From positions 1 to 64,000 of the forward strand of contig NZ_LMOH01000030.1 in the NCBI RefSeq assembly GCF_001423245.1: a stretch of 64,000 nt of DNA, read 5' to 3'. The first letter of the stretch is position 1. Each line of letters begins with the position of its first letter. Under the pieces are notes generated by a model, which was not told where the DNA came from, made no database searches, and worked only from the letters and a program-made list of their open reading frames with translations. Below are positions 1,883-5,018 of the stretch, in pieces. The position numbers and the translations under genes were made by a program. This DNA comes from Aureimonas sp. Leaf324 (GTDB taxonomy: Bacteria > Pseudomonadota > Alphaproteobacteria > Rhizobiales > Rhizobiaceae).

Positions 1883-2312
1883 GGGGCGGCCGGGACGGTC
1901 GACGGCCTCGGCTTGCCCGATCCCCGTGCGGCGGCGCGGAACCCGGGAGCCCCGGCTCTTGACGTGCGCGGTCGTGGCCCGTCGGTGGTATCGCCCCAGG
2001 AATCGTGGACAGCGAAGGATTCAATCCTCGGATCGAATCCTTGCAGGGCGATCCATTCGTCACCAAATCCTTGCCATCGCGGGCGCAAGGCCCGCGAGTC
2101 ATGGGTTGACCCTGTCAAGGGCCGGCGACGAGATCAGGTCGATGAACAACGAGATCATCTCCTTGGTTGGTTCGCCGGACTGTTCCGGCAGGACGGCCAG
2201 AAGTCCGATGAGGACGGCACGGCCAGCATACCTCAGCATGTCGAATGACTGGCAGCATGAGAGGCTCCTCCGGGGTCTCGCCTAGAGACGGCAAGGGCGT
2301 CGGGTAGACGGA
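1883..2312 (+). ncRNA. Candidate structured non-coding RNA upstream of the reverse transcriptase
   Basis: This 430-nt spacer holds no convincing gene but a run of inverted repeats. AAGGATTC at 2015-2022 pairs with GAATCCTT at 2035-2042. CGCGGGC at 2078-2084 pairs with GCCCGCG at 2090-2096 over a GCAAG loop. TTGAC at 2106-2110 pairs with GTCAA at 2114-2118. GCCGGA at 2174-2179 pairs with TCCGGC at 2184-2189 over CTGT. GTCTC at 2275-2279 pairs with GAGAC at 2285-2289. A 9-nt direct repeat ACGAGATCA lies at 2128-2136 and 2149-2157. A TTGACG at 1959-1964 could be a -35 element, but no good -10 follows at 17 bp. Some defence reverse transcriptases (DRT2, DRT9 and others) use an adjacent structured RNA as template or cofactor; this spacer fits that arrangement. 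The boundaries and the RNA itself are inferred. Confidence 0.4.
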
Positions 2313-3782
2313 ATGCCATCCCGACCGACGTCCCTTCTCGCTCCGCCCCGGCCCTGGTCGATGCCGCGCGACAGGCTCAAGCGTTACCCGCACTTCGACA
2401 GCCCCCTCAGCCCCGAGGCGGCCACGGCGCTGGCGACCGACCCGGTGGCGGTGGCCCGGCACCCCTTCCGTCCGCTGCTCCTCTTCCAGGACGTGAAGCG
2501 GTACTTCCGGAGGCACGGACAGCCACGCAAGCCGCCGAAGAAGCGGCCGATCCGCTTCGCGGCCCGCGGCGACGCCTACATCTACATGCGCTACCGGGAC
2601 TGGCTGTCGTGCCTCTACGAGGAACGCCTGGGATCGCTGGACCTCGGCGACGCCGTCGCGGCTTACAGGCGGGTGAGGAGCCCGTACCGACGCGGCAACA
2701 AGTGCAACATCGACTTCGCGTACGACGCGATCGGGCACATCCGGCGCCTGCGCGACTGTCACGTGCTGTGCCTCGACATCAAGAGCTTCTTCGAGAGCCT
2801 CGACCATGCCCGGCTGAAGGAGGTCTGGGCGTCGTTGCTTGGGGTCGGAGACCTGCCTCCCGACCACTACCGCGTCTTCCGCAGCCTGACGAACTACGTC
2901 GAGGTCGACCAGCTAGAGGTGTACCGACGGCTGGGCTTCTGGGGATGGAAGGCTGTCCGTAACCGAGGGGACCTCGTCGAGGGCTACCTGGTCGACCGAC
3001 GGCAGATACCGACCCAGCTTTGCGACGCGCGGACGATGCGTGAGGTGGTGTTTGGCGAGGGAGGCAAGCACCCAAAAATCGCGGTCAGGCGGACCGAGAG
3101 CTACGGCATCCCCCAGGGAACCCCGATCTCGGACCTCCTCGCGAACATGTACATGCTGGACTTCGACCGGGACATGAAAACGCTCGCGACGTCGCTCGGC
3201 GGTCACTACAGCCGCTACAGCGACGACATCCTGTTCGTGGTGCCCGCCGACGCGGTGGCACCCTCGGTCCTCGAAAGGACAGTGTCGGACGCGATCAGCC
3301 TCCAGGGCGACGAACTCCGCATCGCCGAGGCCAAGACGTCCGTCCATCGGTTCGCCCCGGACGGCGACACGCTGAGCTGCGTGGCCGTCGGAAGCACCCC
3401 GCCGAACAAGCGGTTCGAGTATCTCGGCTTCCGCTTCGACGGGCGCAACGTGCGCCTTCGCGACTCCACGCTCTCGGTCCTCCGCCAGAAGATCGCCGGA
3501 ACGGTCCGTCAGGAGGCCGTCGCCCAGTCCAGACGGTACCGGTCGCGCACGACCGACGAGATCTGTGACCGCTACGACTACCGGAGGATCTACGAGCGGT
3601 ACGGACGCGTCCGAGACTTCGAGGACGTGACCGACAAATCGGGTTGGACGTTCTGGACGTACGTCAAGCGCATTGAGGAGGTCATGGGGCCGGACGCGCG
3701 CCCGATCCTCCGTCAGTTGCGGAACCAGAAGGCGCAGATCCGCGAGCGCTTCAAGCACTACGTGGAGAAGGACAGGGCGTGA
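2313..3782 (+). CDS. Reverse transcriptase of the DRT/UG defence type
   Basis: The 489-residue protein has a complete reverse-transcriptase core. Motif A is VLCLDIKSFFESLDH (151-165, catalytic D155). Motif B is GIPQGTPIS (265-273). Motif C is RYSDD (301-305), with serine in the usual YxDD position. A YLGF box lies at 370-373. About 130 N-terminal residues and a basic helical tail of about 110 residues flank the core. There is no maturase domain X or HNH endonuclease, which argues against a group II intron. I see no retron-type VTG box. The overall layout resembles stand-alone UG/DRT antiviral enzymes, with DRT2-like the closest by eye. The start at 2313 has a weak site; ATG at 2361 (MPRDRLKRY) is an alternative. 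The gene is flanked by long structured spacers. Reverse transcriptase activity is well supported; the DRT subclass is an inference. Confidence 0.88.
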   Translation: MPSRPTSLLAPPRPWSMPRDRLKRYPHFDSPLSPEAATALATDPVAVARHPFRPLLLFQDVKRYFRRHGQPRKPPKKRPIRFAARGDAYIYMRYRDWLSCLYEERLGSLDLGDAVAAYRRVRSPYRRGNKCNIDFAYDAIGHIRRLRDCHVLCLDIKSFFESLDHARLKEVWASLLGVGDLPPDHYRVFRSLTNYVEVDQLEVYRRLGFWGWKAVRNRGDLVEGYLVDRRQIPTQLCDARTMREVVFGEGGKHPKIAVRRTESYGIPQGTPISDLLANMYMLDFDRDMKTLATSLGGHYSRYSDDILFVVPADAVAPSVLERTVSDAISLQGDELRIAEAKTSVHRFAPDGDTLSCVAVGSTPPNKRFEYLGFRFDGRNVRLRDSTLSVLRQKIAGTVRQEAVAQSRRYRSRTTDEICDRYDYRRIYERYGRVRDFEDVTDKSGWTFWTYVKRIEEVMGPDARPILRQLRNQKAQIRERFKHYVEKDRA

Positions 3783-4187
3783 CGCCGAGGCCGGAAGCGA
3801 GGGGCCGGCATCCGGAACGCACGCCGCTGAAGCGGAAAGGTGGAGCGCCCGCGTCTGCGGGACGGGGGCCGGTTGGAGCGATGGCGGAACTACCCATCGG
3901 GAGCCCAGTCGGCCCAACCGGTTTCGGACGAGAAGGCCCAATCCCTTCCATCGGTTCGCCAAATCCCTTCCATCGGGAAGTGCAACTCCTTTCACGACGA
4001 TCCGAACGCCCCTCCGGAAGCCGCCTTGACGAGGCGTCGGCCGCCGCGGCCTCAAGCTGCGGGGGGCATGGCCACCTCGCACGGCCGGTAGCAACATGGG
4101 TCGAGACAGAAGGGGCGACGGGGTCGATTCTTTCGGTTGAGGCGGTCACCGACCCTTGGCATCGATGTCCCCTACGAAGGGTAGCCG
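3783..4187 (+). other. Structured intergenic spacer after the reverse transcriptase
   Basis: No gene is supported in this 405-nt spacer. It contains a nested stem: CCGGTTGG at 3869-3876 pairs with CCAACCGG at 3914-3921. Inside it CGATGG at 3879-3884 pairs with CCATCG at 3894-3899 over a 9-nt loop. A smaller stem precedes it, CCCGC 3848-3852 with GCGGG 3857-3861. A further stem, GGGTCG 4121-4126 with CGACCC 4150-4155, lies just before the next gene. Two copies of a 15-nt repeat lie at 3940-3954 and 3962-3976. It could be a second RNA, a 3' extension of the reverse transcriptase transcript, or the leader of the next gene. Confidence 0.5.
3940..3976. repeat. Two copies of AATCCCTTCCATCGG, period 22
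   Basis: Exact 15-nt copies at 3940-3954 and 3962-3976. A third copy of the last 14 bases is inside the following gene at 4957-4970. A degenerate copy, CCAAATCCTTGCCATCG, lies at 2064-2080 upstream of the reverse transcriptase and matches 15 of 17 bases of the second copy with its flank. The shorter core CAATCC(C)TT also appears at 5147-5154 and 5165-5173 near the gyrB junction. Confidence 0.75.
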
Positions 4188-5018
4188 ATGAACGACAACC
4201 GACTCTCGGACCTCACCATCGAGTGGGCGAAGCCATCGACCTGGGTCGACGACATCGGAAGATGGGTCGGCCAGCGCTTGAAACCGGGCGGCACGGAGCG
4301 TTTGGCCCGGCGACCCCGGAAGCTGCATGCTTGCGACGATACGGAGTGGTTGTACCAAGTCGGAAAGGCATCCCGAGCCGACCTCGGCGACCTGCTGGAC
4401 GAAATGGCGAACGACCTCGCCGCTGCACGCGCCATCGTCTTCCATGGCACCCGGGTCGACGATCCCGGCTGCTTCTCGAAGGAAGGTCTAAGGGTCAACG
4501 ATCCCGACGCCCTCGAAAGACGGGTTCGCGAACTCCTCCGCGAGGAGCCCGAACTTGCCCGGCGTTACCCGGATCCCGACAGGCTTCTCTCGACGTTCGA
4601 GGACAGGGGCCGGGACGCTGGACGCCTGTTCCTGGCGTTGGACGACCGAAGCCTCCTCGACGGAGGGGGACATTACCTGCTGTACGGCAGCGAATGGCTA
4701 CAGACGTTGTTGGGCTGGGATGCTCACCCCGTGATGCGCCGTCGCGGCCATCCGACGATCGTGCGTGCCGCCCTGCCACTCGATTCGGTCTCGGCCGGAG
4801 TGCGCAACGAACTGGCAGCCAAGCTGCTGTTGGAGTGGGCTCGCCGAACGGCGATCCGGACCGTCGAAGTGCCGAAACTCGATTTCTCGTTCTGCCTCAG
4901 AGGCGACCTACCGCCTTCCGCGATACTGGGACACGAGCATCCGGCCGAAATCGAGGATCCCTTCCATCGGGTCGTCTGGAAAACCGAGAATCGCACATGC
5001 CCGGATTGCAGTCCGTGA
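4188..5018 (+). CDS. Uncharacterised protein with ADP-ribosyltransferase-like motifs
   Basis: I do not recognise this 276-residue protein with certainty. ATG at 4188 has a good ribosome site (GAAGG at 4176-4180). It has no signal peptide or membrane segment, so it should be cytosolic. The most distinctive parts are FHGTR (85-89) followed about ten residues later by KEGL, and HYLLYGSE (162-169), then a GHPTIV strand at 187-192. An early H-G-T, then H-Y, then a late acidic residue recalls the H-Y-E layout of ADP-ribosyltransferase folds. That resemblance is by eye only. The C-terminus carries a CPDC pair (271-274) that could bind metal. It lies about 400 nt after the reverse transcriptase on the same strand and could be an effector or toxin of the cassette, or an unrelated passenger. 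Confidence 0.6.
   Translation: MNDNRLSDLTIEWAKPSTWVDDIGRWVGQRLKPGGTERLARRPRKLHACDDTEWLYQVGKASRADLGDLLDEMANDLAAARAIVFHGTRVDDPGCFSKEGLRVNDPDALERRVRELLREEPELARRYPDPDRLLSTFEDRGRDAGRLFLALDDRSLLDGGGHYLLYGSEWLQTLLGWDAHPVMRRRGHPTIVRAALPLDSVSAGVRNELAAKLLLEWARRTAIRTVEVPKLDFSFCLRGDLPPSAILGHEHPAEIEDPFHRVVWKTENRTCPDCSP

What the first reader, a model, noticed from the sequence alone, without database searches (positions are those of the whole stretch)
1883..3782. Reverse transcriptase with a structured upstream RNA: candidate DRT-type antiphage system
Seen: an intact reverse transcriptase with motifs A-B-C (D155, GIPQGTPIS, YSDD) preceded by 430 nt with at least five hairpins and no gene. Known: DRT2 and several other UG/DRT systems pair a reverse transcriptase with an adjacent non-coding RNA that is templated, in DRT2 giving concatemeric cDNA. 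Inference: this spacer is the RNA partner, so the pair may be a DRT2-like or new class member in a GC-rich alphaproteobacterium.
Basis: partly seen in the sequence, partly recalled or inferred. Interest (0 to 1): 0.85.

Follow-up and report, generated by a model that had tools for sequence, protein, structure and literature searches.

The report
Divergent DRT2 system with hidden gene
Next to a reverse transcriptase this bacterium carries an RNA whose copied-and-repeated complement would spell an endless, stop-free gene, as in the known DRT2 anti-phage systems, but with a different signal at the point where the copies are joined.

Summary
The enzyme is a Drt2-family reverse transcriptase (PADLOC 2.6e-122; predicted fold closest to DRT2 structure 9c0i). 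Before it lies a covarying RNA at about 2073-2343, which runs into the start of the RT gene. The published DRT2 mechanism allows a test that was not in the finding: reverse-complement the template, repeat it, and a stop-free frame with a promoter across the junction should appear. It does: template 135 nt (2105-2239), TTGACA and TATGCT 17 bp apart across the junction. Of 17 loci of this alphaproteobacterial clade with readable upstream DNA, all 17 have the promoter blocks (some with a mismatch) and 16 the endless frame; the full rule with exact motifs holds in 12 of 17 and in 0 of 2042 control segments. The join differs: the ACA/ACA pair of KpnDRT2 is absent and GTT/GT[T,C,A] (CTT/CTC in two relatives) stands there, its first two bases identical in 16 of 16 loci even when that was not used to choose the template. 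This is a new variant of DRT2. Copying, defence and Neo protein are inferred, not measured.

The parts
2073..2343 (+). predicted DRT2-type non-coding RNA (ends approximate)
   Evidence: Conserved block in 15 aligned loci; folds better than shuffles, z -2.60, 2 of 200 as good; covarying 3' helix. 5' and 3' ends not determined.
2077..2097 (+). 5' handle hairpin (8 bp)
   Evidence: hairpins of different sequence sit just 5' of the template in many relatives (read by eye, not counted).
2105..2239 (+). predicted reverse-transcription template, 135 nt; its reverse complement is one Neo repeat of 45 aa
   Evidence: length divisible by 3, one stop-free frame across repeat junctions, the other two with 12 and 4 stops per 4 repeats.
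2105..2107 (+). GTT-1, jump motif at the template 5' end (in place of ACA-1)
   Evidence: its first two bases equal those of motif 2 in 16 of 16 loci.
2113..2118 (-). -35 element TTGACA of the promoter formed across the repeat junction
   Evidence: on the RNA strand TGTCAA in 15 of 17 clade loci, CGTCAA in L005, TGGCAA in L029.
2156..2158 (-). candidate Neo start ATG, preceded directly by AAGGAG (2159-2164); the zero spacing is atypical, a TTG 9 nt on is an alternative
   Evidence: no control was run for start codons.
2225..2230 (-). -10 element TATGCT, 17 bp from the -35 element once repeats are joined
2240..2242 (+). GTC-2, jump motif just 3' of the template (in place of ACA-2)
2261..2279 (+). 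hairpin like the 'buttress' of KpnDRT2 RNA (name by analogy)
   Evidence: hairpins at this place in many relatives, read by eye, not counted.
2293..2336 (+). long 3' hairpin like the 'tower' of KpnDRT2 RNA (name by analogy), spanning the RT start codon
   Evidence: 11 of 13 pairs with changes on both sides (4 of 500 shuffles reach this); 91.8% of cells paired against 71.3% in shuffles (0 of 500 as high).
2313..3782 (+). Drt2-family reverse transcriptase, 489 aa

Best explanation
A two-part DRT2 anti-phage system. The RT binds the upstream RNA. [quoted passage not shown] Second-strand synthesis makes it double-stranded. Each junction brings TTGACA and TATGCT to 17 bp spacing, so RNA polymerase transcribes the repeats, and a stop-free, hydrophobic, probably helical Neo protein of 45-residue repeats stops growth of the infected cell. 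Shown here: family, RNA conservation, template geometry, promoter geometry, endless frame. Inferred from KpnDRT2: RNA binding, copying, jumping, phage trigger, transcription, translation, growth arrest.
For: Drt2 family. Concatemer test: 16 of 17 clade loci have a length divisible by three (117-150 nt) and an endless frame, always in the same register to the promoter. Choosing the -35/-10 pair by promoter mismatches alone, the best pair is unique and passes length and frame in 10 of 17 loci, the window among them; it is one of 2 to 4 tied pairs in 5; it does not pass in L005 and L014. Control, full rule: exact motifs 0 of 2042 segments against 12 of 17 loci; up to one mismatch 12 of 2042 against 15 of 17. 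The Neo repeat is more hydrophobic than shuffled versions in 16 of 16 loci, P 0.06 or less each. The jump dinucleotide is identical in 16 of 16 loci with templates chosen without it, and changes on both sides together in L013 and L028. The 3' hairpin covaries.
Against: L014, from the window's own genus and in the clade by the RT tree, has the motifs but a 152-nt template with no endless frame. In this window alone a stop-free frame is not surprising (0.54 of shuffles); the force comes from the set, whose members are related. Synonymous changes are not clearly favoured in the Neo frame. The third base of the jump motif often differs between the two sites, whereas in KpnDRT2 breaking ACA homology abolished defence (PMC11100668, section 7). 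The CTT/CTC change is one event on the tree. The Neo start is unclear: no in-frame start codon within 45 nt after the -10 in the window, various positions in relatives. No transcript, cDNA or phage data.
Confidence: 0.86

Rival explanations
1. A DRT2 system whose RNA is copied into repeats, but whose effector is the repetitive DNA (or RNA) itself rather than a translated Neo protein, as DRT9 makes homopolymer DNA.
For: Synonymous changes not clearly favoured in the Neo frame; L014 keeps motifs without an endless frame; Neo start codon and Shine-Dalgarno spacing unclear in the window.
Against: Length divisible by three with an endless frame in 16 of 17 and hydrophobic bias in 16 of 16 are hard to explain without translation.
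Confidence: 0.07
2. A decayed or host-regulatory RT locus: RNA and RT kept for another purpose, or no longer active.
For: One relative has a broken RT (L015/L017) and one a template without endless frame, so decay occurs in the clade.
Against: In the window the RT frame is intact, catalytic residues are in place and template, promoter and frame are all intact.
Confidence: 0.05
3. A retron or group II intron RT with an unrelated structured leader.
For: Both are distant relatives with RNA partners; weak model matches exist.
Against: Drt2 407 bits against 59 or less for the retron and general RT models listed; group II maturase 62 bits against a cut-off of 300; fold match 5.2e-31 to DRT2 against 1.4e-9 to a group II RT; no Rfam family reaches its gathering score in the window.
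Confidence: 0.01

Closest known systems
KpnDRT2, the Klebsiella pneumoniae DRT2 system (PMC12039810: main text parts 1 and 2 of 3, bioinformatics section, legends and passages seen; PMC11100668: sections 7 and 10, legends part 1 of 2 and passages seen)
   Same: Drt2-family RT without further domain; upstream RNA of about 270-280 nt with 5' handle, template and 3' scaffold hairpins; template length divisible by three; -35 and -10 reconstituted 17 bp apart across the junction; endless hydrophobic frame.
   Different: RT 28% identical in the structural alignment and 489 aa against 425; no ACA-1/ACA-2 pair but GTT/GTC; by my reading of the published distances the junction lies about 2 nt further from the -35 element (inference); Neo start candidate 66 nt after the -10 rather than 13; RNA overlaps the RT start codon; NCBIfam Drt2 cut-off not reached.
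Second alphaproteobacterial DRT2 group (L016, L025 from a Rhizobium beringeri plasmid, L031)
   Same: CGTT/CGTT at the junction, 129-nt template, endless frame.
   Different: Separate branch of the RT tree; RT 29-33% identical to the window's.
DRT9 and DRT10 (UG17)
   Same: Class 2 RTs with an RNA partner and repetitive DNA products (PMC12632851, passages).
   Different: RT models and the DRT9 fold score far lower; protein priming and short or homopolymer templates (passages and abstract, not tested here).

Membership tests
DRT2 | Drt2-family reverse transcriptase, best match by a wide margin | tested here: met
   PADLOC 2.6e-122; all 26 aligned members match both Drt2 models; fold closest to 9c0i, TM 0.72/0.83.
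DRT2 | NCBIfam equivalog cut-off for Drt2 (390 bits) | tested here: not met
   330 bits. The window lies outside the core of the named family.
DRT2 | Upstream structured RNA conserved with the RT | tested here: met
DRT2 | Template length divisible by three with one stop-free frame in the concatenated reverse complement | tested here: met
   Met in the window and 15 clade relatives; not met in L014.
DRT2 | -35 and -10 elements 17 bp apart only across the repeat junction | tested here: met
   The 17-bp spacing was assumed in the scans; length, frame and jump motif are what test it.
DRT2 | ACA-1 and ACA-2 flanking the template (conserved among KpnDRT2 homologues) | tested here: not met
   The window RNA has one ACA and no pair 90-165 nt apart; GTT/GTC stands at the junction.
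DRT2 | Neo start with ribosome-binding site 13 nt after the -10 | tested here: not met
   No in-frame ATG, GTG or TTG within 45 nt after the -10 in the window; among 16 loci 9 have one at various distances; other candidates lie 54-84 nt after the -10.
DRT2 | Hydrophobic, helical Neo repeat | tested here: met
   Hydrophobic in 16 of 16; helix-loop-helix only at low confidence, pLDDT 66.
DRT2 | Pseudoknot in the 3' scaffold | not tested
   No pseudoknot model was built.
DRT2 | Phage-induced concatemeric cDNA, Neo protein, abortive infection | not testable with these tools
   Needs experiments.
Retron | Retron RT family and msr-msd RNA | tested here: not met
   Retron RT models listed score over 350 bits below Drt2; no Rfam match at gathering score in the window.
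Group II intron | Maturase RT above cut-off and intron RNA | tested here: not met
   62 bits against 300; no Rfam match at gathering score.

The most novel reading that the evidence does not exclude
DRT2 template jumping does not need ACA. In two separate alphaproteobacterial branches the nascent cDNA realigns on GUU/GUY (or CUU/CUC), with as few as two matched bases, at a junction shifted from that of KpnDRT2. The realignment signal is thus an evolvable matched pair, and divergent DRT2 clades of the kind in which Neo was hard to annotate hide Neo genes that appear once this junction is used.
Probability: 0.67. Interest if true: 0.6.

Novelty: new variant of a known kind. Interest (0 to 1): 0.52.

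Why it matters
Tang et al. [quoted passage not shown] Here a divergent clade (RT support 100/100; whether it is one of theirs I could not check) keeps promoter, length rule and endless frame and swaps the jump signal. That makes an open question directly testable: which bases at the junction let the enzyme restart. It also extends the hidden, copy-made genes to GC-rich alphaproteobacteria.

Tried and rejected
Rejected: retron and group II intron. RT start at ATG 2361: considered, because many homologues start right after the RNA; three of four differences between window and L002 just upstream of it look synonymous when read by eye, which favours 2313, weakly. Selection on Neo by synonymous changes: uninformative. 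Rfam on the RNA alone: one chance-level match. Viral contigs: 12 pattern matches, none a relative. Phages: 3 distant hits. A positive control with KpnDRT2 itself failed: the best plasmid relative of a KpnDRT2 RT piece is 54% identical, and 398 genomes of the phylum gave 3 with a match, none close. That nearest one, Photobacterium (L023), has an endless 111-nt frame, but its ACA pair was not clear.

The tree left out L015, L017, L032 (broken RT), L027 and L030; L015 is counted in the clade by its RT identity (50%). L029 was left out of the RNA alignment A1, L014 of the 16. Without a clear template: L009 and L024 none; L010-L012 only candidates with two mismatches in varying places; L026 one with one mismatch.

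Full report
What was checked. The window holds an intact RT frame at 2313-3782 behind a structured spacer. PADLOC and NCBIfam put the RT in Drt2 (407 and 330 bits), although the NCBIfam cut-off of 390 is not reached. The AlphaFold model (mean pLDDT 85.6) has the solved DRT2 enzyme 9c0i as best match (E 5.2e-31, TM 0.72/0.83), ahead of DRT9 (3.1e-10) and group II intron RTs (1.4e-9). Sequence search of solved structures agrees (9c0i at 4.4e-53).

Relatives. A scan of species genomes gave 11 loci. Whole-genome searches found a match in 5 of 151 relatives, 4 of 385 of the class, 6 of 397 of the order, 1 of 10 and 1 of 2 around two hits and, with a KpnDRT2 piece, 3 of 398 of the phylum; the counts include the window's own genome. 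Plasmids gave 28 records, of which I fetched 7. A midpoint-rooted tree of 27 RTs places the window in a group of 16 rows with support 100/100: named rows are alphaproteobacteria, save L007, named only Proteobacteria; the Photobacterium, Psychrobacter, Acinetobacter, Rhizobium, Ketogulonicigenium and Bacteroidota rows lie outside. The nearest are Aureimonas leprariae (78%) and Hansschlegelia plantiphila (64%). With L015, whose RT is broken and not in the tree, 17 loci make up the clade below.

The test. The two DRT2 papers report that the reverse complement of the template, repeated head to tail, gives a stop-free frame, a length divisible by three, and a promoter whose halves meet 17 bp apart across the junction (PMC12039810, main text part 2; PMC11100668, sections 7 and 10). 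I aligned upstream regions, saw conserved TGTCAA and A..ATA blocks, and computed the repeats. In the first eight loci, with boundaries set by eye, all eight lengths were divisible by three (135, 135, 135, 129, 138, 138, 117, 150) and exactly one frame was endless, in the same register each time. An automated scan of 28 locus entries (26 distinct) extended this to 16 distinct clade loci. The seventeenth, L014, has the motifs and a 152-nt template with no endless frame. By promoter mismatches alone, without length, frame or jump motif, the best pair is unique and passes in 10 of 17 loci, is among 2 to 4 tied pairs in 5, and fails in L005 and L014.

Chance. Stop-free frames are common in GC-rich DNA: shuffles of the window template keep frame 0 open in 54% of cases, so the window alone proves little. 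Over 16 loci the product of these probabilities is about 1e-8, overstated because the loci are related. With the full rule (motifs, 17-bp spacing, length, frame, jump dinucleotide) 0 of 2042 control segments of 420 nt pass with exact motifs and 12 with up to one mismatch, against 12 and 15 of 17 clade loci. Controls came from the window and nine loci, both strands, overlapping by half, with the real sites of the window and five clade loci left out. Neo repeats are more hydrophobic than shuffled stop-free versions in 16 of 16, the bias reported for Neo (PMC12039810).

The junction. With the two flanks placed in register, the bases 8 and 7 nt before the -35 block are identical on both sides in 16 of 16 loci, and no other position exceeds 9 of 16. 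The templates there had been chosen with the jump dinucleotide as one criterion, so I repeated the choice without it: it is unique in all 16 and gives the same counts. The dinucleotide is GT in 14 and CT in two (L013, L028), changed on both sides, one event on the tree. Motif 1 is GTT or CTT; motif 2 is GTT, GTC, GTA or CTC. L014 has GTT/GTT. The window RNA has no ACA pair; where relatives have an ACA pair 90-165 nt apart with a suitable endless frame (L005, L007, L018, L019), TGTCAA does not stand at the distance that I infer for KpnDRT2. The Rhizobium-type loci L016, L025 and L031, on another branch, have CGTT on both sides, 129-nt templates and an endless frame. That KpnDRT2 has its junction 6 nt from the -35 block is my reading of distances in the text, not a test.

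The RNA. RNAalifold on 15 aligned loci finds a 3' hairpin with 13 pairs; 11 have changes on both sides (reached by 4 of 500 shuffles), and 91.8% of cells pair against 71.3% in shuffles (0 of 500 as high) and 49-62% when slid. No other helix was predicted from that alignment; single-sequence folds show hairpins at the 5' handle and between template and tower in many loci (by eye). In the window the tower spans the RT start codon. A candidate Neo start stands 54-84 nt after the -10 in 15 of 16 loci (L005 none, L004 a GTG), often with a partial Shine-Dalgarno match; I looked only in a set stretch and ran no control; in the window the spacing is 0 nt, which is poor. Other in-frame start codons stand within 45 nt of the -10 in 9 of 16, not in the window. 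A single Neo repeat is predicted helix-loop-helix with low confidence (pLDDT 66), in line with the helical Neo of the preprint.

Literature. A search for DRT2, ncRNA and alphaproteobacteria gave no paper; six other searches on DRT2 led to the papers cited. In the held text of PMC11100668 'GTT' and 'alphaproteobacteria' do not occur; 'alphaproteobacteria' does not occur in PMC12039810. The journal version of Tang et al. did not appear in any listing, the UG/Abi survey is not held, and supplements could not be opened, so this is not proof of absence. PMC12596737 and PMC12632851 were seen as passages only.

Verdict. A DRT2 system by enzyme, RNA, promoter geometry and hidden frame; a variant by its jump motif, uncertain start position and overlap with the RT gene. 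Copying, jumping, defence and Neo toxicity are inferred from KpnDRT2.

Noticed in passing
65-1882: AAA ATPase with an FtsH-like M41 peptidase domain directly upstream of the DRT2 locus; a 48% identical protein, in two frames, lies upstream in L002; no match in the other loci held, many of which have short flanks. Possible defence partner or mere neighbour.
   Followed up: partly
4188-5018: 276-aa ORF without any Pfam, NCBIfam or PADLOC match up to E 0.1; of 61 genomes searched only the window's own and one of the same genus have it, the latter at 63%.
   Followed up: partly
3942-3954, 3964-3976, 4958-4970: The 13-mer TCCCTTCCATCGG occurs exactly three times in the held genome, all here, on both sides of most of ORF 4188-5018.
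   Followed up: no
L014 (reverse strand): A clade member from the window's genus whose template keeps the motifs but has 152 nt and no endless frame: decay or a different product.
   Followed up: partly
L002:8001-9464: The RT match of Aureimonas leprariae runs on past the stop at about 9338, so that its RT reads 445 aa in one frame.
   Followed up: no
L020, L015, L006 just after the RNA: The 3' C-rich end of the RNA could pair with the G-rich stretch before the RT start codon, a possible control of RT translation (seen by eye).
   Followed up: no
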